Assembly: GCF_902809845.1 (NCBI RefSeq)
Contig: NZ_CADDWI010000013.1
Coordinates: 1,024,114-1,088,113 of the forward strand
Direction: 5' to 3'
From: Chelativorans sp. Marseille-P2723
GTDB taxonomy: Bacteria > Pseudomonadota > Alphaproteobacteria > Rhizobiales > Rhizobiaceae
DNA length: 64,000 nucleotides
In this document: in pieces, positions 52,546 to 64,000 of the stretch
Layout of the letters: each line of letters starts with the position of its first letter
Position numbering within the stretch: the stretch's first letter is position 1
The notes under the pieces: model-generated
Seen by the model: only the letters and a program-made list of their open reading frames with translations
The model's database searches: none
What the model was told of the DNA's origin: nothing
Made by a program: the position numbers and the translations under genes

Positions 52546-53301
52546 ATGAAGATCGATGGAACTGCTGTTGTGGTAACTGGAGGGGGCTCCGGTTTGGGGG
52601 CTGCGACAGCACGCCTACTGGCGGCAAAGGGGGCAAAAGTCGCGATCTTCGACGTTAACCTTGATGCTGCGAAAGCCCTTGCCGAGGAAATCGGCGGCGT
52701 GGCGATGCAGTGCGACGTTTCGGATGAAGCTGCAGCCGACGCAGTTGATGCGGCCGCTGAAGCGCATGGGCCGGCTCGGGTGCTGGTCAATTGCGCTGGA
52801 ATTGGAGACGCGGGAAAGACAGTAAGCAAGGACGGGCCATTGTCGCTGGCTGAGTTCAGCCGTGTTGTCAAAGTGAACTTGATCGGCTCCTTTAACATGC
52901 TGAGGCTTGTCGCGGCGCGGATGGTTAACCTTGAGCCGATCGGCGAGGAGCGCGGAGTTATCATCAATACCGCTAGCGTTGCTGCGTTTGAAGGGCAAAT
53001 CGGGCAGGTTGCCTACGCGTCCTCGAAAGGCGGCGTGGTCGGCATGACGTTGCCTGCCGCGCGGGACCTGGCGCGTTCGGCAATCCGTGTAAACACCATC
53101 GCTCCGGGGCTCTTCTTGACGCCGCTTTTGATGACGGTTTCTGAAGAATACCGTCAAAGCCTAGCAGCGCAGGTTCCTTTCCCGCCGCGGCTGGGAGACC
53201 CCAGCGAATACGCCACCTTGGTCGCGCACATCGTTGAAAACACCATGATCAATGGTGAGACGATAAGGCTAGACGGGGCGATCAGGATGGGGCCCAAGTA
53301 A
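52546..53301 (+). CDS. Short-chain dehydrogenase, 3-hydroxyacyl-CoA dehydrogenase type II-like
   Basis: A 251-aa Rossmann-fold oxidoreductase. The cofactor motif [26 protein letters not shown] is near residues 11-36 (Asp at the strand end suggests NAD), NCAG near 88, and the catalytic Ser, Tyr and Lys are in [24 protein letters not shown] near 145-170. The insert [30 protein letters not shown] resembles the human HSD17B10/bacterial 3-hydroxyacyl-CoA dehydrogenase group. It stands alone, ending 24 bp before the CRISPR array. Confidence 0.85.
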
Positions 53302-53325
53302 CCATCGGTTAAAGTCAAGGCTTCG

Positions 53326-53720
53326 GACGTATCCCCACATGCGCGGGGGAACCGTCTCTTTGCGCTGGCAATCGTGCTTTGTACGGGGCGTATCCCCACA
53401 CGCGTGGGGGAACCCCTTGGCATCATTCTTGATCTGAAATCATCCGCCGGCGTATCCCCACACGCGTGGGGGAACCCCGCCTCGAAGGTGCGGCCATCGC
53501 CCTCAAGCGGGCGTATCCCCACACGCGTGGGGGAACCTAGCCGCGCCCGTACCACGGGTAATACCGCAGGGGCGTATCCCCACACGCGTGGGGGAACCCT
53601 CTCGCCGCTGCCGGCCTCGCTTGTCGACAAGGGCGTATCCCCACACGCGTGGGGGAACCGCCGAATATGTGACACCGGCTTGGCTGACATCGGGCGTATC
53701 CCCACACGCGTGGGGGAACC
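53326..53720 (-). CRISPR. Type I-E CRISPR array: 7 repeats, 6 spacers
   Basis: Seven 28-bp repeats (plus strand: GGCGTATCCCCACACG then CGTGGGGGAACC) start at 53326, 53387, 53449, 53510, 53571, 53632 and 53693. Spacers are 33 bp, except one of 34 bp (53415-53448). On the minus strand the repeat is the typical I-E form beginning GGTTCCCCC. The copy at 53326 differs at three positions, as expected for the terminal repeat, so the leader is at the 53721 end. Spacer targets cannot be identified without a search. Confidence 0.97.
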
Positions 53721-53768
53721 TCTGTCCCTCAGTAAGTTGATTTATAACCACAATGTCAAAGAACAATG
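53721..53768 (-). promoter_or_regulatory. Leader-proximal remnant beside the first CRISPR repeat
   Basis: These 48 bp, AT-rich, are what is left of the leader on the array side of the transposon. On the minus strand they contain AATCAACTTACTG (53730-53742), one mismatch from the IHF consensus WATCAANNNNTTR, about 10 bp from the first repeat, where I-E leaders bind IHF. The outer 8 bases (GAACAATG, 53761-53768) are the duplicated target. The other part of the leader is at 57211-57234. Confidence 0.6.
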
Positions 53769-53792
53769 CGCCATTAGGTAGCAACCGCCACC
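53769..53792 (+). repeat. Left terminal inverted repeat of the IS1595-family element
   Basis: 24 bp beginning CGCCATTAGGTAGC, the exact reverse complement of 57187-57210. Confidence 0.95.
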
Positions 53793-53849
53793 AGACGTTT
53801 AACGCCTGATCTGGTATCCCCTGCGGCCTGGTTCCAGGGGATCGGCGGG

Positions 53850-54302
53850 ATGAGCGTTTCTGACGAGTTGAAGGCGAAGCGAGGCGAACTGGCGGAGCGT
53901 ATCCGCGACCTGACGGCGGAACTGGCAGATGTGCAGGCGCAGATGGCGGCCGTCGACACGGTGATCGCCATCTACGAGCCCGAATGGAAGCCTGAGCAGC
54001 CTCAGAAACGTCGCAGCCGCCCGCCAAAGGCCGAGAGCATCAAGGAACTCGACAAGATCATCGGCGGGACGAACAAGCGCCAGATGACGTTAGATATCCT
54101 TCGGACCGCCACCCGCCCCATGTCGACAGCCGAATGCGCGGCCGAATTCGCCACGAGGCACGGACTGTCGGAGAACGATCCGCGTGTCACAGTCATCGGC
54201 AACCGCCTGTCCTCTATCCTGGATGCTCTTCAGAAGGCCGGACGGGTCCGCCATGCCGGAATGCTCGACGGGCATCGCAAGCAATGGGAGATCGCCGCCT
54301 GA
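53850..54302 (+). CDS. Transposon passenger: coiled-coil/winged-helix-like protein
   Basis: A 150-aa soluble protein. Residues 1-35 are heptad-rich (SDELKAKRGELAERIRDLTAELADVQAQMAAVDTVI), then a basic, proline-rich linker (PEQPQKRRSRPPKAESIKEL), then a domain resembling a winged helix (MTLDILRTATRPMSTAECAAEFATRHGL...VTVIGNRLSSILDALQKAGRVRHAGML). It could bind DNA or a partner protein. Proteins of this general look accompany IS1595-type elements. It converges on the transposase gene with a 3-bp gap. Confidence 0.7.
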   Translation: MSVSDELKAKRGELAERIRDLTAELADVQAQMAAVDTVIAIYEPEWKPEQPQKRRSRPPKAESIKELDKIIGGTNKRQMTLDILRTATRPMSTAECAAEFATRHGLSENDPRVTVIGNRLSSILDALQKAGRVRHAGMLDGHRKQWEIAA

Positions 54303-54305
54303 GCC

Positions 54306-55400
54306 TTAGATCGGCTCGAACGGTCTGTCGAAGTCCTCAAAGGCCGGATCGGGCGGACTGTTGCCCTGCCAGTAGCCGCAGAAGTTCCTCGAGGTCGGGT
54401 TCAGCATCACCGCGAACAGCACCAGCGCGGTGAGCTGGCCGTTGCTCTTCCGGCGATGGTCCTCCCGCCAGGCGAGGTCGGCGACGTACCAGTCAAAATA
54501 CTTCAGCGAGAAGCGATGGTGGATGCCGACATAGGCCCGCTGGATGCGCGAGAAGAAGCTCTCGACATGGTTGGTGTCCGTGCCGTCCTCGGCCTGGTAC
54601 ATCTCCGAATGGTTGACGTGCTTGTGCTCGTTGAGGCCCGTGATGTCCGCGTAGCTCGTGTGCTCGTCGGTGACGATCGTAGCGTCCCGGCTGACGTGGT
54701 CGCGGACGGTCGCCCAGGCAGCGTCGCCCTGCTCCTCGCGCACAATGCGCGTGAAGGTCCGCTCGAAGCCGCTGCCGTTCTTTTCGCGCAAGGCAAGCAC
54801 GCACAGCCGCTTCATGTTCTGGTACTTCTTCAGCCTGCGGTCGATGCGGTCCTCGGCCTTGTTCTTCTGCTTGATGTGGCCGCCCGCGTATTTGCCGTCC
54901 ATCTGGACTTGGCCGTCGAGCTTCATGCCGACGCGACGGAGCCCCAGCGCCTCCTTGATCTTCAGGGACAGAACCCAGGCGGTCTTGTACTGGACCCCCA
55001 ACTCGCGGGAGAGGTGGAGTGCGGCCTTGCCCTTGACCGCGTTCACGGACATCCAGATCGCCGCCAGCATCTTCCAGAAGCTCAGCTTGTGGAAGGCGAA
55101 TACCGTGCCGGAGGTGACGGAGAACTCACGGCGGCAGCCGGAGCACTTGAAGGCGCGCCTGCGGAGCGCGTAGCAGTCGAGAATCCCGCAATGCGGGCAA
55201 ACCGGCTTCCCTTGCGTCTTGGGCCAGCGGAACTGGCAAAAGATCGCGAAGGCTTCCCCCTCGTCAATTCTGACGAGCTGGTTGATGGTGAGGTCGCGGC
55301 ATTCCGGCGACAGGAGGAAGTGCTGGCCCTGCTGGTATTTCAGACCTCCGTGCCTCGGCAACGGGGTCGAAGTAGACAGAATCCGAAGATGAGACCTCAA
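54306..55400 (-). CDS. ISXO2-like (IS1595 family) transposase
   Basis: A 364-aa DDE-type transposase. An N-terminal zinc ribbon (PVCPHCG near residue 67, FKCSGC near 84) precedes the catalytic region with DGKYAGGH, DEHTSYADI, and HVNHSEMYQAED followed by TNHVESFFSRIQRAYVGIHHRFSLKYFDWYVADLAWR. The frame begins at a TTG with a poor ribosome site. A better start (ATG 55452, AGGAG) opens another frame that would join this one if one base near 55340 were removed. The N-terminus may therefore be frameshifted, or made by frameshifting. The reading is otherwise intact. Confidence 0.85.
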   Translation of the reverse strand: MRSHLRILSTSTPLPRHGGLKYQQGQHFLLSPECRDLTINQLVRIDEGEAFAIFCQFRWPKTQGKPVCPHCGILDCYALRRRAFKCSGCRREFSVTSGTVFAFHKLSFWKMLAAIWMSVNAVKGKAALHLSRELGVQYKTAWVLSLKIKEALGLRRVGMKLDGQVQMDGKYAGGHIKQKNKAEDRIDRRLKKYQNMKRLCVLALREKNGSGFERTFTRIVREEQGDAAWATVRDHVSRDATIVTDEHTSYADITGLNEHKHVNHSEMYQAEDGTDTNHVESFFSRIQRAYVGIHHRFSLKYFDWYVADLAWREDHRRKSNGQLTALVLFAVMLNPTSRNFCGYWQGNSPPDPAFEDFDRPFEPI

Positions 55401-55449
55401 GGACCTTTGGGGTCAGGCGGGGCGTGCGGATAGGCTGGGAATGGATGTT

Positions 55450-55553
55450 CATGTTCAGGCTCCTGAGGACAGCGGGTCGTCGATACGCATGGCGATACGG
55501 CGGCCTCGGGAGGCCGTCGGGATCAGCGCCGTATGCGTATCCGCCTGAACATG
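55450..55553 (-). promoter_or_regulatory. 104-bp nested palindrome covering the transposase RBS and start
   Basis: The outer arms CATGTTCAGGC (55450-55460) and GCCTGAACATG (55543-55553) are exact complements. Inside are GATACGCAT (55482-55490)/ATGCGTATC (55533-55541), ATACGGCG/CGCCGTAT and a central GGCCTC/GAGGCC. On the minus strand the ATG at 55452 and most of the AGGAG site lie in the 3' arm, so any transcript from outside the element would fold and hide them. Confidence 0.7.
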
Positions 55554-55769
55554 AGCGGGGCCCTTAGTGGATCTGGCCGCAGGAGTCGATCGGCTTCTTA
55601 ACCTGGAGTTAACGGGAGGTAAACGCACCAACTTCATGATGGTTAATTCCAGACGAGTTGACGGAGGCTGTGTTTGCTGGGGAGGCCACGTCGGCTGGGT
55701 GGCGATGCGGTTCCAGATGTGAGAACGTCATCAGACCAGGTAGCCCCGAGCATCAAATATGAGTTCACG
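55554..55769. other. Intergenic region inside the transposon
   Basis: About 215 bp between the transposase palindrome and the ClpP-like gene. It is AT-richer than host DNA and should hold divergent promoters. No further gene is seen. Confidence 0.45.
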
Positions 55770-56834
55770 ATGAAGAATATCCTGCCCATGTTGTTTGTAG
55801 CGCTGTCGGCTTTGGTTGCACCACAGGCTGAGGCGATCGAGATCTCAATGGAGAGGGGGAACGCGACCTCGATTATCCGAGTCACCGGACCAATCGAAAA
55901 TGGCGATGCGGAGCGCTTCAAGGCCTACTGGAATGAGAATGCCTACGACTCGTGGAATTTCATTGTCTCTCTGGATAGTCCGGGCGGGAGCCTCATAGAC
56001 GGCATCGAGATTGGGCGCTTTCTCAGAAAGGTCGGGGCCGATACCGTAGTGAAGCGCTATTCTCCAACCGTTCCGGGCCGCTTTTCGGACGAATTGCCCG
56101 GCGCTGAATGCTACTCAGCTTGCGCGCTCGCATTCATGGGCGGTGTGGAACGCGATGTTCCGGATACTGGTAGGATAGGGTTCCATCAGTTCTATGGCGG
56201 CGGAGCATCAACAACCGCCGAGGCGATGGAGCGAACCCAGTACATCGCCGCTATGGTGGCAAATTACCTTCGCGACATGGGAGCGAAGGTCGAATTGTTT
56301 GAAATCATGTCGTTGAAATCACCTGAAGATATGTTCGTCCCGACCCGCGACGAGATTGCTGCCTTGGGCATCGTTCCGTCCACCAGCTTCCACGGTTTCC
56401 GACTTATGCCTAAAGACGGCTTGATAGTCGCTACCGCGACGAACGAACGAAATCCCAATATGCTTGAAAAGGTCTACGAAATAGAAACGTTCTGCTGGAA
56501 GACGATCCCTATTATCAATCTTTATGCTTCTAGCCCGGAGCAAGGGCTGAGCCAAGATCAAACGACATGGGTCGCTGAAGGCGGCGGATTCCAAATTGAG
56601 ACTGAGCTTGGCACCTTTGACCACGGCATCGAGCGCATTAGGCTTTACTCATCAACAAGGCTCTTAGCATCTCTGATCCTTGATGCCCGAGTAGCCCGTG
56701 CCCTCGGGAGCGGGAACGCTTGGGTAAGGGTGAAAGGCGGCTCTACAGCTTCCGGGGTATTCATGACAGGTGAGATTACCGCACCACCAGGGGGCGATCC
56801 TGCCATCATGGCGAGCTTTCGTGAATGCATTTAG
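55770..56834 (+). CDS. Transposon passenger: secreted ClpP-like serine protease domain protein
   Basis: A 354-aa protein with a signal peptide (MKNILPMLFVALSALVAPQAEA) and a ClpP/crotonase-like domain. LDSPGGSLIDGIEIGRFLRK near residue 70 matches the oxyanion region, Ser in ECYSACALAFMGG near 113 and His in RIGFHQFYGG near 135 fit a catalytic pair. The C-terminal 150 residues have no recognised domain. The signal peptide points to the periplasm, away from cytoplasmic ClpX/ClpA. GC is well below the host level. Role in the element unknown. Confidence 0.75.
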   Translation: MKNILPMLFVALSALVAPQAEAIEISMERGNATSIIRVTGPIENGDAERFKAYWNENAYDSWNFIVSLDSPGGSLIDGIEIGRFLRKVGADTVVKRYSPTVPGRFSDELPGAECYSACALAFMGGVERDVPDTGRIGFHQFYGGGASTTAEAMERTQYIAAMVANYLRDMGAKVELFEIMSLKSPEDMFVPTRDEIAALGIVPSTSFHGFRLMPKDGLIVATATNERNPNMLEKVYEIETFCWKTIPIINLYASSPEQGLSQDQTTWVAEGGGFQIETELGTFDHGIERIRLYSSTRLLASLILDARVARALGSGNAWVRVKGGSTASGVFMTGEITAPPGGDPAIMASFRECI

Positions 56835-56898
56835 TGCATAAGTGATCAATTGCGGCGATACAGAAGATATTGTATCGCTTCTTATTGAGGATGTTCGG

Positions 56899-57150
56899 AT
56901 GGACTGGAAAGATAAATTTGAAAGTACCTTTGGATGTAAAGCCATCCTTTGGAGTTTAATTTATCCGCGTGCGATGCTGTTGATTAATTCCGAGGGGATA
57001 CCTCCTCTATCAGAGGTCGGGGCGTTCTTTACGCGCGAGGTTCCAGAAGTGTCGAGCGTGCGAATAGTCACCCGGAATAACAAGTTCGTTCACTTTTTCA
57101 AACCGTCGCACCACGAAGATTGGCGTGTTTCGAAATCCAGCGACGACTAG
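56899..57150 (+). CDS. Small hypothetical protein of the transposon
   Basis: An 83-aa soluble protein (MDWKDKFESTFGCKAILWSLIYPRAML...), AT-rich like its neighbour. ATG 56899 has GAGGA upstream; an earlier GTG at 56842 would add 19 residues. No family recognised. It ends 37 bp before the right terminal repeat. Confidence 0.5.
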   Translation: MDWKDKFESTFGCKAILWSLIYPRAMLLINSEGIPPLSEVGAFFTREVPEVSSVRIVTRNNKFVHFFKPSHHEDWRVSKSSDD

Positions 57151-57186
57151 AGCCGACTGGCACCTGCGCAGGCTCCTATTTCCGTT

Positions 57187-57210
57187 GGTGGCGGTTGCTA
57201 CCTAATGGCG
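57187..57210 (-). repeat. Right terminal inverted repeat of the IS1595-family element
   Basis: 24 bp reading GGTGGCGGTTGC on the plus strand, the exact reverse complement of 53769-53792, followed by the target duplication GAACAATG. Confidence 0.95.
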
Positions 57211-57234
57211 GAACAATGAAAGCCTGAGCCGGGC

Positions 57235-57543
57235 TTAATTCATATTTGGCAGTGCGCGTCTCACCAGCAACATCGCGTCGTGTGAGACGATTTCTTTTGG
57301 CGGTTCGCCGAGCAAGGCAAGGCCAAGACCACCGTTGGCGCTACTGTCGGCCCAAGTCATCACAATGCTGCCGCGATGCAACTGGCCATGCCAGCCACTG
57401 AGCACCTGCCAGATTTGCTCTCTCACCCGCGCGTTCATGCGCGGGTGCGCATAGACGCCTGGCGCGAGCTCCAGCATCGCCGAGCCCAAAAAGCCGCGGT
57501 AGCGGTGCTCCACATCGCGCGTGATGACCACTACCATGGGCAT
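57235..57543 (-). CDS. cas2: CRISPR-associated endonuclease Cas2, type I-E
   Basis: A 102-aa Cas2e: MPMVVVITRDVEHRYRGFLGSAMLELAPGVYAHPRMNARVREQIWQVL is typical of the I-E subfamily. It partners Cas1 in spacer capture. It ends the cas operon, 1 bp from cas1, and reads toward the leader, now interrupted about 20 bp after its stop. Confidence 0.95.
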   Translation of the reverse strand: MPMVVVITRDVEHRYRGFLGSAMLELAPGVYAHPRMNARVREQIWQVLSGWHGQLHRGSIVMTWADSSANGGLGLALLGEPPKEIVSHDAMLLVRRALPNMN

Positions 57544-57544
57544 C

Positions 57545-58414
57545 TCAGATTTCCCTATCCGGTCCGATCAGGCTCTTGATCCTGTCAATCATCGAAGGGA
57601 TGACATTGCGCTGACGGAACAGCCGGGCGGCACGCCGGCGGGTCAGGCGCTCCACCGATTCGCCAGACTTCAGACACTCCGCGGCGGCACCAAAAGCAAT
57701 ATCCAGGGTCACGTCATGCCGATAAAGATCGGCAATATCGAGCACGAAAGATTGACCGGAATCCTCATGCACAAATCCTAGTTGCGGAATGGCTCCTACA
57801 GCTGCCACTGCAACGCAGCCAGCGGCGCGCATGGCACTGGCTGCATGGTTGAGGGCCTGGTTCGGAATGTCTCCCTTATTCGGATTGTCCCGGTCGTAAC
57901 GGCGCCCTTTCCAAGGGAGTCCGTGCCGTTCGGCGGCAAGTTGATAACTCCGCTTGATGCGGGCACCCTCCTGTCCGCGCAGTACCTCGATATCGCGCGT
58001 GCGCACAATCTCTCCGAAACGAATGGCATACATGGCGCGCGCCACCTCCATGCGTGTTGCGGGATCCGCCCATAGACGAACCTGCTCACGCGCTATGGCC
58101 GAGCTATCGGGCATCAGCGGAGGGGCGGTGTAGAAGCGGACCGCCCCTTCGCCGATAGCTGCAAGGGCACAGCCATGGCGGGCCAAAAGACGCAATGCAT
58201 CATGGGTGACGCTCGTTCCGGGCCCAAGCAAGATGACGGACAGGGATTGATGCGGGATCTGGTAATCTCCGGCTTGCAGCTCGCCTCCGCCCGCCGTCAG
58301 GAAACGCAAGCATCCGTCCTCAACCTCCAGACGCCCGCGGTCAAGCCAGACCAGGCCATGACGGTCGCTGTGGGGAATTCTGGCTTTCTCCAGCCCGAGG
58401 CGGCCGAGCAGCAT
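57545..58414 (-). CDS. cas1: CRISPR-associated integrase Cas1, type I-E
   Basis: A 289-aa Cas1e integrase. Metal-binding residues lie in YAIRFGEIVRTRDIEVLRGQEGARIKRSY (Glu near residue 142), in the histidine of PQLGFVHEDSGQSFVLDIADLYR, and in its Asp residues (near 208-221). The ATG at 58414 has an AAGGAGGA site, so the earlier in-frame start is rejected. It inserts new spacers with Cas2. Confidence 0.95.
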   Translation of the reverse strand: MLLGRLGLEKARIPHSDRHGLVWLDRGRLEVEDGCLRFLTAGGGELQAGDYQIPHQSLSVILLGPGTSVTHDALRLLARHGCALAAIGEGAVRFYTAPPLMPDSSAIAREQVRLWADPATRMEVARAMYAIRFGEIVRTRDIEVLRGQEGARIKRSYQLAAERHGLPWKGRRYDRDNPNKGDIPNQALNHAASAMRAAGCVAVAAVGAIPQLGFVHEDSGQSFVLDIADLYRHDVTLDIAFGAAAECLKSGESVERLTRRRAARLFRQRNVIPSMIDRIKSLIGPDREI

Positions 58415-58424
58415 CTCATCCTCC

Positions 58425-59153
58425 TTATGCGGGGCGCAGCAGCAGCATGCCGTAGCCGTAGGGTGTGTGCCGTCCCACTCCCCGGCGTAGTTTCTCGGCA
58501 AATGCCACTCCATCCGTAATGGACAACTCTCCCAGAAAGGTGACGTCTGGCCCGCTGGAGGATCTGCCGTTACGCAGGGCAGCGCTTCGCTCCATGCCCG
58601 TCATGCGTGCGTTTTCGAGCTTTGCGGCGCCTTCCAGACGTTCCGCCAGCCATTGGGCATATACCTGATCGCGCCGTACTTTCTGACTGGCATCTTCCGG
58701 AGGGCCGTCGGGGAATCGGTGCAGCGCCTCAAGAAGCCATGCGTCCACTTCCGCTCCCTTGCGGGCGAATGTCCCGACAGGCTTGTGCAGCCGCCGGACG
58801 GGCCGGATGCGAACGTCAAAGGCAAGTCGACGGCCCGCGCTCCAGCTCTCCGGCATGGATTTTATGGAAAGATGCTCAAGGCCGAACACTTTCGCGCTCT
58901 CCGGCGGCGCGGTTTCGGCGAGAGCACGGTACATGTTCTCAGCGGTCCGGCCCGTATAGCCGTAAAGGGTTGCTGTCCGGGAACCGTTACGCCCAGGCAT
59001 CAGGCGGAAAGGCTGCACGGCGCTCTTGCCAAAGGCTTCGCAAAGGAAGTGGTGCAGCGCTCGTCCCTCGTCAGCGCCAAGGCCATGTAATGCCGCCAGC
59101 CGGCGCAGCTCACGCAGGTCCACGGGAAGGCTGATCATATGGAGCGGATTCAT
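58425..59153 (-). CDS. cas6e: crRNA-processing endoribonuclease Cas6e
   Basis: A 242-aa RAMP protein (CasE). The N-terminal ADEGRALHHFLCEAFGKSAVQPFRLMPGRNGS, with the His near residue 34, and the C-terminal glycine-rich LRRGVGRHTPYGYGMLLLRPA identify it. It cuts the hairpin of the repeat and stays on the crRNA in Cascade. It overlaps cas5e by 4 bp. Confidence 0.93.
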   Translation of the reverse strand: MNPLHMISLPVDLRELRRLAALHGLGADEGRALHHFLCEAFGKSAVQPFRLMPGRNGSRTATLYGYTGRTAENMYRALAETAPPESAKVFGLEHLSIKSMPESWSAGRRLAFDVRIRPVRRLHKPVGTFARKGAEVDAWLLEALHRFPDGPPEDASQKVRRDQVYAQWLAERLEGAAKLENARMTGMERSAALRNGRSSSGPDVTFLGELSITDGVAFAEKLRRGVGRHTPYGYGMLLLRPA

Positions 59154-59878
59154 GCGGCAAGCCCTTCCGGCACCACCCGGCCCTCGACGACTTTGCGCGC
59201 GCCTCCATGCAGGCCCGTACGCCAGTTGCGAATGTCGGGAAGGTCGACGATGCGATCCACCTTGCTGCCTGTTTCCGGCCCTTCTCCGAGCGGCCAGAAA
59301 GCGCGCGCCTTTGCCCCCGCAATCTTGCGCAACGCATCATGGGCGGTCGCGGCGTGGACGAAGGGTTCTTCGCGCAGCAGCGGCCCTGCCGGCAGGCAGG
59401 GCTTACGGCCGATGAACAGCGGGCGGGCGGGTTTCGCCAGCGCCTCGGCGAGCGTATCGAGATCGGGGGCAGGACCACCCCGCAGCCGCAGCACCACGAC
59501 CACATGCGCATCCGTGTGGTAGTCCCGCAACCGCCGGTGCGGTGCTTTGTAAGTCCCGTCGCCGCCGCCACGCTTCTCGAATTCACCCCAGGTTGTCCAG
59601 CCCCTGTCGTTTTTCTCAAGCCGCGCATTCTGGGTGTCGGTGAGAAGCCCCGCAGGATTTTCCCGGTCCCGCCTCGCGGCAAAAACGAGCCGCTCCTGCA
59701 ACTCCTGATGCTTCTTCCAATCCGTGCGGCGGTAGCCCAGCGCATTGGCCAGAAGGCCAGTCATCATGGAAAGCGCGGGAAAATCGCGCGTGATGCCGAT
59801 ATGGTCGATCCTCACGCCCCCGAAGGCGATGAGCGGCGCCTCGAGGTGCAGGGTGAGCCAGCGATGGTCCTCAGGCAT
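59150..59878 (-). CDS. cas5e: Cascade subunit Cas5e
   Basis: A 242-aa Cas5 (CasD). LTLHLEAPLIAFGGVRIDHIGITRDFPALSMMTGLLANALGYRR at the start and RDYHTDAHVVVVLRLRG near residue 115 match the family. It binds the 5' handle of the crRNA. It overlaps cas7e by 8 bp. Confidence 0.93.
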   Translation of the reverse strand: MPEDHRWLTLHLEAPLIAFGGVRIDHIGITRDFPALSMMTGLLANALGYRRTDWKKHQELQERLVFAARRDRENPAGLLTDTQNARLEKNDRGWTTWGEFEKRGGGDGTYKAPHRRLRDYHTDAHVVVVLRLRGGPAPDLDTLAEALAKPARPLFIGRKPCLPAGPLLREEPFVHAATAHDALRKIAGAKARAFWPLGEGPETGSKVDRIVDLPDIRNWRTGLHGGARKVVEGRVVPEGLAA

Positions 59879-60998
59879 CCGGCGCGTCCTTCACCTTTTC
59901 CGCCGCCCATCCGGCAAGCGCGGCGAGTGAGCACTTTTCGATTCCGTCGATGTGGCCGTCCACGCACATATGCCGGCGATCCTCGCCGGTAGCATAGGCT
60001 TCATCGAACGCCTTGAGCTTCTCCTTCATCTTGTCCAGAGCTACGCCGATATCGTGCGGGATCGCCTCGCGATAGCTCGTGGCCAGCGAACGGGGCTGGC
60101 GGTCGCCCGCCTCAATCAGCATCAGATCGGCACGGCCATAGGGCGCGGTGGAGCCGAGCTTTGCGCCGGGTGAGACTTCGGCGATCAAATGGATGAGATT
60201 GTGCGTCACGCTGGAGGCCAGATCGCTGTCGCCGCCGCAGTTGGCGATCAGGCCGGGCAAATCAATGACCACATAGCCGTAGAACAGGCCGCAAGTGATC
60301 TCGGTTTCCTGGATTGTATCGGCTCCGCCATCATCATCGTCGCGCTTCAGATCATCGACGGCCGTGAAGTAGTCGTCCTCGGATTCAGCGGCATGCACGG
60401 TGAAGGCATGGGCAACATGCACCGGAGCGTCGATATTGGCCGCAGGATCGGATGTGACCATTCGCCCGAAAAGTGCGGCGGTCAGACCACCCGGCAGGGC
60501 GGTATTTTCGCTCATCGCCTTGAAATTCTTTGTTTTTGCCCACTCCGCGACGGCCATTTCAGCCACTTTGGGGTCGCTAGCGCTTGCGGCAATTTCCTCC
60601 GCACGAGCCGCCAGCCATTCCAGTTCGGGTTGGCCAAGAAGCAAGGTTTGCCGGCTTTTCTTGCCCTTGTCAGCCTTTTCACCATAAACCAGCTTTTGGA
60701 AGGATGGCTCAAGGACTGCCACCACCGCATCGGGATACCGGCCCTTCAGGGGCGCGATTACCTTTTCGGTGACCAGTTCCCGTGATCGGAAAGAATCCAC
60801 ATAGCCCGCAATGCGTTGTAGCGCATGGGGATCGTTTTCCGCTGTCCTCCAATGCCGCTTGAGGCATTGCGAGGAAATGCGCGTCCGGCTGGTGCCGCCA
60901 TAGACGAGCCGCTTAGCCTGGCCGCTGTCATCCCGGTTGAGAAGTGCTGCCGTATAGGAGTGGAGAGTATGGATCTGCAGGAAACGCGGGCTGGTCAT
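59871..60998 (-). CDS. cas7e: Cascade backbone subunit Cas7e
   Basis: A 375-aa Cas7 (CasC/Cse4). FLQIHTLHSYTAALLNRDDSGQAKRLVYGGTSRTRISSQCLKRHWR at the N-terminus is the family hallmark. Six copies coat the crRNA. An Asp-rich insertion, DDLKRDDDDGGAD (near residue 225), lies in the middle. It overlaps cse2 by 4 bp. Confidence 0.95.
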   Translation of the reverse strand: MTSPRFLQIHTLHSYTAALLNRDDSGQAKRLVYGGTSRTRISSQCLKRHWRTAENDPHALQRIAGYVDSFRSRELVTEKVIAPLKGRYPDAVVAVLEPSFQKLVYGEKADKGKKSRQTLLLGQPELEWLAARAEEIAASASDPKVAEMAVAEWAKTKNFKAMSENTALPGGLTAALFGRMVTSDPAANIDAPVHVAHAFTVHAAESEDDYFTAVDDLKRDDDDGGADTIQETEITCGLFYGYVVIDLPGLIANCGGDSDLASSVTHNLIHLIAEVSPGAKLGSTAPYGRADLMLIEAGDRQPRSLATSYREAIPHDIGVALDKMKEKLKAFDEAYATGEDRRHMCVDGHIDGIEKCSLAALAGWAAEKVKDAPDA

Positions 60999-61525
60999 GC
61001 GGCTTCATCCTCCTTGGAATCCGGTTTGGTTTGCGCCCCGTCGTGTGCGCGGTAATAGCTTTCCGCCAAACGGCGGGCATCGCGGACGTCATCGGCAAAC
61101 AGTAGGCGTGCAATGTCGACGCAGTTGACGCCGTCATGCCCCTTGGCCGCGAGCCAACGGGCCATGCGCTCTAACGATTCCCCGCGTTTGGCGACAGGCA
61201 GTGCGAGAAAGTTCAGCAGACGCGTTTCGGGATAACCTGCCTCGAAAAGGACAGCTCCAAGCGGCCTGTCCCTCTGATGCAGCTTCTTGTTCGCGCCCGG
61301 CTCACCTTTTGGTGTGAGCAATGCCATAAGGCGAACGAGCAGGAGACCTTTATTGTCGGTGCGCAGGTCATGCTGGACCGCAAGCCGCCAGAAGTCGCCT
61401 TCACCCGGGCCACTAGGGTCCATGCGCCGGAGGCGCGCAAGCTGCCCGGGATCGAGTTTCACCATGCTCTGGGCGAGACGAAAGACCATCTCGCCGAGTG
61501 TTTGTCCGTTGTCCTCAGGCGGCAT
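60995..61525 (-). CDS. cse2: Cascade small subunit Cse2 (Cas11)
   Basis: A 176-aa helical subunit (CasB). QLARLRRMDPSGPGEGDFWRLAVQH near residue 29 and RGESLERMARWLAAKGHDGVNCVDIARLLF near 112 match the family. It stabilises the non-target strand. ATG 61525 has GGAGG 9 bases upstream; the frame is open to 61657, but that part includes a GC-rich tandem repeat and lacks a ribosome site. Confidence 0.9.
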   Translation of the reverse strand: MPPEDNGQTLGEMVFRLAQSMVKLDPGQLARLRRMDPSGPGEGDFWRLAVQHDLRTDNKGLLLVRLMALLTPKGEPGANKKLHQRDRPLGAVLFEAGYPETRLLNFLALPVAKRGESLERMARWLAAKGHDGVNCVDIARLLFADDVRDARRLAESYYRAHDGAQTKPDSKEDEAA

Positions 61526-61693
61526 CCGTAATGGCCTCCACTTGCTGCGTTTCGAAAAGCTCCGGATGGCGCGCCCTCGCCATGCGGAGCAGGGCCCGTG
61601 CCCGCGCCTCGGCGCGCGCGCCTCGGCGCGCGGCCGGAACAGCGAGGCGCAGGGCATCGCAGGCAGGGCTTGATCGAAGATTGCCTCAGTGCG
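61526..61693. repeat. Spacer between cas8e and cse2 with a perfect 14-bp tandem repeat
   Basis: GCGCCTCGGCGCGC occurs twice in tandem at 61604-61617 and 61618-61631. In most I-E operons cas8e and cse2 abut or overlap, so a 168-bp gap is unusual. No separate gene is seen in it. Confidence 0.55.
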
Positions 61694-63130
61694 CTACCAG
61701 AGCTTCGCCGCGAACGCCTTTTCCGCTTTCCGTAACGCGTCAGTCCCCGCCTCTTGCGCTTCAAAGCGCGCCCAGAGGTGCTCGAAGAAAATCTCGTCCG
61801 CGTAACGATCGAGATGCGCGCGGGCTGGTTCGGAATGCTTGTAAAGGTCCCTCTGGACCCTATCCTGCTCACCTCCGGCAGCGGCGAGCACAAGGGCGTT
61901 CCTCAATGCTCTGTCGAACTCCGCAATGATTTCTACCTGCGCCTGCGCAAGCTGGTGCAGTTCCGCTCGCCTGGGGCCGAGAGCGCGGGAAACCCTGCCG
62001 GAAAGCGGCACGATGCGTGAATAGAAGCCGATTGAACCAGTTTTGACGCCTGGGTTGCCGGCAACACCCTGAGCGACGATAAGTAGTGTACGGGTTTCTG
62101 TGTCAGACTTCCCAAGCTCTAGTAGAGGTGGCAATACCCAGTCGTGTACATCCTCTCCCTTTCGCCTCTCGCCGAAAAGGAGTCTCACGATGACTTTGTA
62201 ATGGAACCCCTTCGAGGATAGTGCGAAAAGTCGACCTTGGGTTTTGTGCGTTGGCGTCCAAGGATCAAACGACTGTCCCTTCAGCGGCTGCGTGTCAATC
62301 AGCCCACTCTTATCTGATCTCGACAGCGCATGTAATTTTTCAGTATTGCTAAGCCGTGCTCGGCGGCAAATTTCGATAAACCAAATATCTAATTCTTTTG
62401 TTTGAATTGGCTTGTCCTTTGGCCATTCTGATAGCCATGTCAGCCCTAGGCCTCCAACCTCGCAAAACGCTTCGTTGTCTTTTCGCGATTCGATCAGGCG
62501 AACGACGCTACGTGAGAACCATGAGCCAAGACGTGGGAATTGAGCGTACTCGCATCTAGCGGAATACGGTGCAAGGCTCATACAAATGCGGGGCGCATTG
62601 CTATTGCCCGTCCTGACCGTGCTTGAGTTCTGCACGTCACGTGTTCCACCTGTCTGCTGCGTCACGAGCGCAAACAGCCAGTCCTCCGGCTCCGCCCTGC
62701 GCGCGACGGCCTGTTTGAGATCATGGTTCTTCGCAGTGATGAGAAGATCGAGGGCATCAGGAGAAGGGATAGGCTTGTCCAGCTTCACCCCATCAGGCAC
62801 TGCCGCCTGCATGAAAGCAGGCTTCGACCAGTCGTCCACCACCAGACACCAAGGCTCATCGTCGGGAAAATCCGCTGTCAGGCCGCGCAGCAGGCGGCGC
62901 CAACTGTCTTCATCCTCGGGAATTTCCGTTTCGCTCGCACGATGGAGCGCCAGCGCGGCAAGCTGGACCAGAAACATGTGCCAGAACATACCCTGATGCG
63001 CGCGCAGGGCCGGGAAGTCATCCACTGCATCGCGGGCGAGCGCCGCGAGGGTTCCCGGCAGTGTGAGAGGCCCGAGTGGGGCGGCGGTGATGATGGCCTC
63101 TTCCAGGAGATTAAACATCCGGTCGCTCAT
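61694..63130 (-). CDS. cas8e: Cascade large subunit Cas8e (Cse1)
   Basis: A 478-aa CasA/Cse1 that recognises the PAM and recruits Cas3. HQGMFWHMFLVQLAALALHRASE near residue 45, PWCLVVDDWSKPAFMQ near 92 and ALVTQQTGGTRDVQNSSTVRTGNSNAPRICMSL near 153 are family features. The middle part, roughly 62050-62560, is AT-richer than the two ends. It overlaps cas3 by 4 bp. Confidence 0.93.
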   Translation of the reverse strand: MSDRMFNLLEEAIITAAPLGPLTLPGTLAALARDAVDDFPALRAHQGMFWHMFLVQLAALALHRASETEIPEDEDSWRRLLRGLTADFPDDEPWCLVVDDWSKPAFMQAAVPDGVKLDKPIPSPDALDLLITAKNHDLKQAVARRAEPEDWLFALVTQQTGGTRDVQNSSTVRTGNSNAPRICMSLAPYSARCEYAQFPRLGSWFSRSVVRLIESRKDNEAFCEVGGLGLTWLSEWPKDKPIQTKELDIWFIEICRRARLSNTEKLHALSRSDKSGLIDTQPLKGQSFDPWTPTHKTQGRLFALSSKGFHYKVIVRLLFGERRKGEDVHDWVLPPLLELGKSDTETRTLLIVAQGVAGNPGVKTGSIGFYSRIVPLSGRVSRALGPRRAELHQLAQAQVEIIAEFDRALRNALVLAAAGGEQDRVQRDLYKHSEPARAHLDRYADEIFFEHLWARFEAQEAGTDALRKAEKAFAAKLW

Positions 63131-64000
63131 GATCTCACCCTCTCCAACCCGTCGCGGTCATAGGAAAATTCTGTGTCTCCGACGCCAAAGCACAGCTTCC
63201 CGCCTACGCGCTCGGGCGTGATCAGTTCTTCCGGCGGCAGGATGTGTTTCGACCAATGCGCGGGCAGCGTCACGCCGCTGATCACCCGTCCGAACGGACC
63301 CACGACTCCTTCCGTGAAATGGACCCGTGCGCCTTCGGCTCCGAGACGCGTTCGAATGGCCTGCTCGTCGCTCACGAACAGCAGCGGGTTGCCGCTCTCA
63401 TTGATAAAGGCCTTGTCCGTGGGCAGCGCGACATTCCGCGCACTTCCGGCAGCAGCGATTTCTGCTCCGTAGACGTCGTTCCAATAGTCTGCCCAGGCGG
63501 AACCCAATTCTTCGTTCAATGCCCCGATTTTTTCCGGATGGGTGGCGCTTTCCACCAGCAAACGGTTCATCCGCGGGATGACCCATTCGGGATGGTCGAT
63601 GATGAGCCGCCGGGTCAGTTCGCAGGCATGAAGGTTCTGGTAGACCCCGCCGCCGCTCTTGAACATACCGAGTCCGTTCTCGAACTTCGGTGCGGTGAAG
63701 TAATCGAGCCCACCTTCCGGCGCCAGAACCACGCAACACGGCGCCTCGAAGCCCTGCAGGCGTGGAACGGCGTGGCGGTGCAGCCTTCCGATGCGCTGCA
63801 GGAGAACGTCGGCGGGACAAAGGTCGGTGATGAGCATGTCTGCATCGATGTCCAGGCTCTGTTCGAGCGTCTGCGTGCCGATGACGATCAGCCCACCAGA
63901 AGGACGTTTCTCCCGCTTAGGTGAAAGCGCCTCTTCTACGGCCTCATCCAGTAATCTGCGATCTTCTGGCGCGAAGCGGGAATGGTGGAGGGCCGGTCCG
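63127..64000 (-). CDS. cas3: CRISPR-associated helicase/nuclease Cas3, partial (C-terminal part)
   Basis: The frame continues beyond the window edge. The visible 290 residues cover late helicase motifs (LIVIGTQTLEQSLDIDADMLITDLCPADVLLQRIGRLHRH) and the C-terminal domain. The HD nuclease and Walker motifs lie outside. It is the first gene of the cas operon in view, followed by cas8e through a 4-bp overlap. Confidence 0.93.
   Translation of the reverse strand, partial: GPALHHSRFAPEDRRLLDEAVEEALSPKREKRPSGGLIVIGTQTLEQSLDIDADMLITDLCPADVLLQRIGRLHRHAVPRLQGFEAPCCVVLAPEGGLDYFTAPKFENGLGMFKSGGGVYQNLHACELTRRLIIDHPEWVIPRMNRLLVESATHPEKIGALNEELGSAWADYWNDVYGAEIAAAGSARNVALPTDKAFINESGNPLLFVSDEQAIRTRLGAEGARVHFTEGVVGPFGRVISGVTLPAHWSKHILPPEELITPERVGGKLCFGVGDTEFSYDRDGLERVRS

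What the first reader, a model, noticed from the sequence alone, without database searches (positions are those of the whole stretch)
53761..57218. IS1595-family transposon splits a type I-E CRISPR leader between cas2 and the array
The element has perfect 24-bp inverted repeats and an exact 8-bp duplication, GAACAATG, on both sides. Joining 57218 to 53760 rebuilds a normal locus: cas2, about 70 bp of leader, then the first repeat. As it stands, 3.4 kb separates the leader's cas-side part from the 48 bp left by the array. Array transcription must now come from within the transposon or from the remnant, and adaptation may be lost or altered, although all visible cas genes look intact.
Basis: seen in the sequence. 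Interest (0 to 1): 0.85.

Follow-up and report, generated by a model that had tools for sequence, protein, structure and literature searches.

The report
Cargo transposon beside a CRISPR array
A mobile DNA element carrying extra genes jumped into the short gap between the immunity genes and the memory array of a bacterial CRISPR system, but it landed just outside the conserved control region, so the system may well still work.

Summary
A 3,442-bp element (53769-57210) with perfect 25-bp inverted repeats lies between exact GAACAATG duplications; without it, 64 bp separate cas2 from the first repeat. In the 61 of 71 related loci where an array was found after cas2, the gap is 15-109 bp. The element is single-copy: an IS1595-family "transporter IS" with a DDE transposase, an accessory ORF also present in the nine closest relatives read, and cargo that none of those nine shares.

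The interpretation needs correcting. In 52 aligned leaders, conservation begins abruptly at G.TCTTTGACA, about 44 bp before the repeat, and is near zero upstream. The array-side duplication keeps this whole block, with its TTGACA-like element and IHF-like site; the transposon begins 4 bp outside it. It separates the conserved leader from cas2 rather than splitting it. No cas gene is interrupted. Seven repeats is short but not exceptional (6 of 43 arrays have seven or fewer). The target 8-mer fits the family's own target preference.

Whether transcription and adaptation survive cannot be settled from sequence; I put largely intact function at about 0.6. New member of a known kind, useful as a natural test of how much leader is needed.

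The parts
53325..53720 (-). CRISPR array, seven 29-bp repeats and six spacers (32-33 nt); repeat 1 at 53692-53720
53721..53764 (-). Conserved leader block kept next to repeat 1
   Evidence: motif-aligned conservation of 52 leaders
53754..53762 (-). TCTTTGACA leader motif, containing a TTGACA hexamer at 53754-53759
   Evidence: 0 mismatches in the window
53730..53742 (-). IHF-like site, 1 mismatch to WATCARNNNNTTR (consensus recalled)
53761..53768 (.). Target duplication GAACAATG, array side
53769..53793 (+). Terminal inverted repeat, left
53850..54302 (+). 150-aa accessory ORF with homologues in nine of nine related elements read; no known family
54306..55400 (-). IS1595-family DDE transposase with zinc ribbon (start codon uncertain)
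55770..56834 (+). Cargo 1: protein with weak ClpP-related matches and a likely signal peptide by eye (listed ORF opens at TTG 55674)
56842..57150 (+). Cargo 2: 102-aa ORF, no known family
57186..57210 (-). Terminal inverted repeat, right
57211..57218 (.). Target duplication GAACAATG, cas2 side
57220..57236 (.). Terminator-like inverted repeat at the end of cas2 (7 such sites found in 53300-57600, 2.8 expected)
   Evidence: not a general feature of relatives
57235..57543 (-). cas2e
57545..58513 (-). cas1e (listed ORF; 57545-58453 was used in searches)
58425..59153 (-). cas6e
   Evidence: NCBIfam match slightly below its cut-off
59150..59878 (-). cas5e
59871..60998 (-). cas7e
60995..61657 (-). 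cas11e
   Evidence: no Pfam or NCBIfam match
61694..63130 (-). cas8e
   Evidence: NCBIfam match below its cut-off
63127..64000 (-). cas3, 3' part; whole 865-aa ORF is at L004 11241-13838
   Evidence: named from sequence and place, no family search

Best explanation
Shown: a cargo-carrying IS1595-family element made one simple insertion into the 64-bp gap between cas2 and the array of a type I-E locus, duplicating 8 bp. Shown by comparison: the joint lies just outside the conserved leader block, and the array-side copy of the duplicated bases carries the block's outer edge, so the complete block remains attached to repeat 1. Inferred: the insertion is recent (perfect ends, exact duplication, single copy); the array is still transcribed from the retained leader, and Cas1-Cas2 with IHF can still dock there, with transposon end sequence now serving as upstream flank; and the site was used because it fits the element's target preference, not because the element seeks CRISPR loci. 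The transposon is therefore mainly a spacer between two modules that each kept their own signals.
For: Perfect TIR and exact TSD. In 61 of 71 loci an array was found after cas2, and in all 61 the gap is 15-109 bp. Leaders aligned on TCTTTGACA: at most 0.27 bit at each of the 18 positions -20 to -3, then 1.37 bits at -2 and up to 1.96 bits inside the motif, 52 leaders including the window's. The window has 0 mismatches in the 9-mer and 1 in the IHF-like site. Zinc-ribbon cysteines and acidic residues of the transposase are invariant in nine elements. A target matrix from 12 TSDs puts GAACAATG in the top 1.05% of window 8-mers. No cas ORF interrupted; family matches; Cas1 keeps 100 of 101 residues invariant in 12 chosen relatives.
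Against: No transcription or adaptation data. The strict sigma-70 scan found no promoter in 53300-57600, so the -35-like reading rests on conservation. In Sulfolobus locus E, a leader that shares 45 bp next to the repeat but lacks positions -46 to -59 shows altered spacer uptake (PMC3839810, passages), and E. coli is said to need about 60 bp (recalled), so upstream DNA could matter without sequence conservation. No empty-site strain of the same species was available. Two of the 71 loci (L099, L121) have more than 5.6 kb after cas2 with no array found there. No protospacers were found that would show recent acquisition.
Confidence: 0.62

Rival explanations
1. The insertion abolished or strongly reduced adaptation: DNA beyond the 48-bp remnant is needed for Cas1-Cas2-IHF docking whatever its sequence or is needed in its native form, and the array is now frozen at six spacers.
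For: Only six spacers, against a median of 24 repeats in 43 relatives. Altered uptake with a similarly short leader in Sulfolobus locus E (PMC3839810, passages). About 60 bp needed in E. coli (recalled).
Against: 6 of 43 arrays next to uninterrupted leaders have seven or fewer repeats. No conserved sequence upstream of the retained block in 52 leaders.
Confidence: 0.25
2. The array is now driven by an outward-reading transposon promoter or by read-through of the transposase gene, which points toward the array.
For: The transposase lies on the minus strand and is read toward the array.
Against: No sigma-70-type promoter found in 53300-57600. A convergent 150-aa ORF lies between the transposase and the array. 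The conserved leader block is intact.
Confidence: 0.1
3. The element is not an insertion but a long-standing part of this locus in the species, with a function in CRISPR control.
For: Cannot be excluded without strains of the same species.
Against: Exact duplication and perfect ends. The gap is 15-109 bp in the 61 loci with an array. Eight complete relatives of the element lie between 8-bp duplications of differing sequence. No defence-family match for its genes.
Confidence: 0.03

Closest known systems
IS1595 family, transporter-IS (tIS) members such as tISCpe8 and MTnSag1/tISSag10
   Same: IS1595 transposase and passenger genes (PMC5704250, passages); 8-bp duplications and zinc ribbon typical of the family (PMC8101967, passages). 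Siguier 2009 is known here only through their citations.
   Different: Other cargo; here a second backbone ORF (150 aa) accompanies the transposase in the nine related elements read
Natural IS insertions that inactivate CRISPR-Cas (PMC10359306, passages)
   Same: An IS landing in a CRISPR-Cas locus
   Different: The 28 events listed there are insertions into the cas region; this one lies between cas2 and the array and interrupts no gene
E. coli ATCC 8739 CRISPR2 array disrupted by an IS (PMC2886076, passages); X. fragariae arrays next to ISXac3 (PMC6113873, passages)
   Same: IS separating parts of a CRISPR locus; the E. coli authors suggest the IS may supply cis regulatory signals
   Different: Insertion inside or splitting an array, not at the outer edge of the leader
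S. solfataricus locus E truncated leader (PMC3839810, passages)
   Same: About 45 bp of leader shared next to the repeat
   Different: Archaeal locus with missing leader DNA, not an insertion; altered spacer uptake was observed there

Membership tests
IS1595 family | DDE_Tnp_IS1595 transposase domain | tested here: met
   PF12762 6.1e-41; NF033547 127.4 bits, cut-off 75
IS1595 family | N-terminal zinc ribbon (except IS1016 group) | tested here: met
   PF12760 6.1e-11; four cysteines invariant in nine elements
IS1595 family | 8-bp target duplication and terminal inverted repeats | tested here: met
IS1595 family | Single transposase gene (stated as usual in PMC8101967, passages) | tested here: inconclusive
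   One transposase gene, but also ORF150 (present in nine of nine related elements) and cargo; cargo-bearing tIS are counted with the family in PMC5704250 (passages)
IS1595 subgroup (ISPna2, ISNha5, ISNwi1 and others) | Placement among ISfinder reference transposases | not testable with these tools
   No ISfinder sequences held
tIS (IS with passenger genes) | Genes unrelated to transposition between the inverted repeats | tested here: met
   ClpP-related ORF and 102-aa ORF have no tblastn match in the nine related elements fetched (L123 is cut by its contig end); eight complete ones carry other ORFs there
Type I-E CRISPR-Cas | cas8e, cas11, cas7e, cas5e, cas6e, cas1e, cas2e, cas3 and 29-bp repeats with ~32-nt spacers | tested here: met
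   cas3 named from its sequence and place, not by a family search
Type I-E leader | Conserved block next to repeat 1 with IHF-like site | tested here: met
Type I-E leader | Recognisable sigma-70 promoter | tested here: inconclusive
   TTGACA conserved but the consensus scan found no promoter
Type I-E leader | Transcription and spacer integration take place | not testable with these tools
   Needs RNA mapping and adaptation assays
Inactivating IS insertion in CRISPR-Cas | Disrupts a cas gene or a conserved leader element | tested here: not met
   No cas ORF interrupted; conserved leader block intact

The most novel reading that the evidence does not exclude
The transposon end has become the upstream half of the leader: its inverted repeat now lies where the bent Cas1-Cas2-IHF complex or RNA polymerase contacts DNA beyond -48, changing the specificity or rate of spacer uptake or array transcription, so that a mobile element tunes an otherwise intact CRISPR memory.
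Probability: 0.12. Interest if true: 0.65.

Novelty: new member of a known kind. Interest (0 to 1): 0.3.

Why it matters
It is a clean natural experiment on how much leader a type I-E array needs in this clade: everything conserved is kept, and everything upstream is replaced by unrelated DNA. The comparison gives a sharp outer boundary (G.TCTTTGACA, about -44) that can be tested directly. The element also points to an IS1595 group with a fixed backbone and an exchangeable cargo slot.

Tried and rejected
Hairpin as a conserved cas-operon terminator just outside the leader: visible in the window and some close relatives, but not significant over 51 leaders against 122 coding controls (mean z -0.49 vs -0.17; z below -1.5 in 8 of 51 and 17 of 122; Mann-Whitney p = 0.107). 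Dropped as a general feature.

CRISPR leaders as a hotspot for this element: the best 8-mer in each of 51 leaders has a median rank of 1.07% against 1.78% in coding controls, and the motif-centred 8-mer a median rank of 6%. Not convincing. In the rebuilt junction GAACAATG is only the third-best 8-mer.

Short array as proof of lost adaptation: rejected; 6 of 43 arrays counted to their end have seven or fewer repeats (18 of 61 arrays that ran off the fetched stretch were left out).

Protospacers: exact 24-nt cores of all six spacers gave 0 hits in viral contigs. The array against phages gave 1 record (25 nt, E 0.4); against plasmids 23 records, most of them 60-80% identical and multi-repeat in span, 5 with short 95-99% matches, those printed at E 0.4 (3 rows not listed). 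Self-targeting in the whole genome was not tested; in the window and the loci then held, own-genome loci left out, no match within 6 mismatches was found outside the array.

Cargo as defence gene: no PADLOC match. No solved relative of cargo 1 or ORF150 at E up to 1. Structure prediction was not run.

Literature: searches on IS at CRISPR leaders gave 142 papers holding at least 4 of 5 terms (15 listed), 7 papers and none. Searches on leader motifs gave none, 11 and 1. Searches on IS1595 are. Passages of nine papers were looked at; no paper was read whole. I do not claim that such insertions are absent from print.
Full report
What is there. The element spans 53769-57210 (3,442 bp). Its ends are a perfect 25-bp inverted repeat and it is flanked on both sides by GAACAATG. 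The genome (3.77 Mb, 13 contigs; the window lies in a 1.36-Mb contig) has one copy. To the right lie cas2e, cas1e, cas6e, cas5e, cas7e, cas11, cas8e and cas3, all on the minus strand; cas3 is an 865-aa ORF that runs beyond the window. Cas6e and Cas8e score below their NCBIfam cut-offs but match PADLOC models at 6.5e-32 and 1.7e-116. To the left lies a seven-repeat array; no other copy of the repeat was found in the genome within 3 mismatches. Its degenerate repeat is at the far end, so the leader end faces the transposon.

Relatives without the insert. A Cas1 search of genome contigs returned 71 loci. Two gave no cas2 match and eight no array after cas2. In six of those eight the contig stretch ends within 161 bp of cas2; L099 and L121 have more than 5.6 kb there without an array. 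In the remaining 61 the distance from the cas2 stop to the array start, as a script measured it, is 15-109 bp. These include Chelativorans intermedius and C. petroleitrophicus (L055, L057), whose contigs have the same lengths as those of G009 and G015, two genomes of the window's own genus. Removing the element from the window leaves 64 bp. The empty state is therefore the norm and the insertion is derived. No other strain of the same species was available.

Is the leader split? I compared the leaders of 60 of the 61 relatives (L108 was dropped because its repeat could not be anchored) plus the window's. Of these 61 leaders, 34 contain TCTTTGACA exactly and 52 within two mismatches, 46 of the 52 at 39-43 bp before the repeat; in shuffled leaders 0.1% were exact and 6.6% within two. 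Aligned on this motif, the 52 leaders carry at most 0.27 bit at each position from -20 to -3, then 1.37 bits at -2 and up to 1.96 bits inside the motif. An IHF-like WATCARNNNNTTR with at most one mismatch occurs in 26 of 61 leaders and in 2.3% of shuffles. In the window the block runs from 53764 to 53721. Its outermost bases lie inside the array-side target duplication, and the transposon begins at 53769. So the duplication preserved the whole conserved block. What was moved away is 24 bp (57211-57234) with no conserved sequence, overlapping a terminator-like inverted repeat (57220-57236). That inverted repeat is not a general feature of relatives.

How it most likely works. Leader function (transcription start and Cas1-Cas2/IHF docking) is probably kept, because every conserved leader element is in place and Cas1 keeps 100 of 101 residues that are invariant in 12 chosen relatives (the exception is Gly for Ala at 212). 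This is inference. The strict promoter scan found nothing, and upstream DNA might matter without sequence conservation, as the truncated leader of Sulfolobus locus E suggests (PMC3839810, passages). The short array does not decide it: of 61 relatives' arrays, 43 could be counted to their end, and 6 of these have seven or fewer repeats, median 24.

The element. Its transposase matches the IS1595 DDE and zinc-ribbon models, and the zinc-ribbon cysteines and several acidic residues are invariant across nine elements. Of 297 genomes of the family, 100 have a transposase match. I read the nine closest copies: eight complete ones (L124-L131) share similar ends and 8-bp duplications, exact in seven and 7 of 8 in L131, and one (L123) is cut by its contig end. 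All nine carry homologues of the 150-aa ORF, and none has a match to the window's two cargo ORFs. The eight complete ones carry other ORFs there: a LysR regulator in L131 (Pfam), and in others ORFs that look by eye like PIN, GIY-YIG, lipoprotein or small membrane proteins but have no Pfam match at E 0.01. This is a fixed backbone with an exchangeable cargo slot, which is what has been called a transporter IS (PMC5704250, passages). Cargo 1 has only weak matches to ClpP-related protease models (NCBIfam E 0.0077, below cut-off; PHROGs 'protease' E 0.0091 and an unnamed family E 2.3e-5). It has homologues, most of them partial and distant, in 182 other genomes of the 297 searched. The nearest plasmid relative, on S. 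meliloti pSymB, has no transposase or inverted-repeat pair of this kind nearby, so the gene was probably picked up from the general gene pool.

Why here. Twelve target duplications of the wider family (ten exact, two with 1-2 mismatches between copies), scored on both strands together, give a CANWWNTG-like preference. In leave-one-out scoring seven of the twelve rank within about the top 2% of window 8-mers and five do not (9% to 76%). GAACAATG ranks in the top 1.05%, though two other 8-mers of the rebuilt junction score higher. The rebuilt gap is AT-rich (44% G+C against 60% for the window). Leaders as a class are at most slightly better targets than coding DNA. Ordinary target choice is enough to explain the site. 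By my own arithmetic roughly a third of positions in a 64-bp gap would leave the block intact, so the fortunate position is not itself evidence of selection.

Verdict. The finding is real and correctly placed. Its main claim, a split leader, should be restated as an insertion at the outer edge of the leader that leaves the conserved block whole. IS insertions in CRISPR loci are known (PMC10359306, PMC2886076, PMC6113873, passages). The value lies in the precise boundary and in the natural test it offers.

Noticed in passing
window 55300-55470 (-): The transposase frame has no ATG upstream of the conserved GQHFLLSPECR; the listed start is TTG at 55400, and an overlapping frame opens with ATG (MNIHSQP...). 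Frameshifting or alternative initiation is possible.
   Followed up: partly
window 53805-53845; left ends of L123, L125, L129, L130: A hairpin lies just before or over the start of the 150-aa ORF in several elements with differing stem sequences, reminiscent of structures that block translation of transposon genes from outside transcripts. Weak or absent in L126 and L131; no statistics made.
   Followed up: partly
L124-L131: IS1595-group elements with constant transposase plus ORF150 and differing cargo.
   Followed up: partly
L171 3256-5624: The nearest plasmid homologue of cargo 1 (S. meliloti pSymB) is itself interrupted by about 1.3 kb near query residue 158.
   Followed up: no
L089: A record titled Bacillus sp. 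2B10 carries a Cas1 79% identical to the window's and a leader and repeats like those of the Sphingomonas records; possibly a mislabelled or contaminated assembly.
   Followed up: no
L099: Repeats lie only at the far cas-upstream end of the fetched stretch, none within 5.6 kb after cas2.
   Followed up: no
window 53325-53720, spacer 5: One spacer is 33 nt and the repeat on its leader side ends in G instead of C.
   Followed up: no
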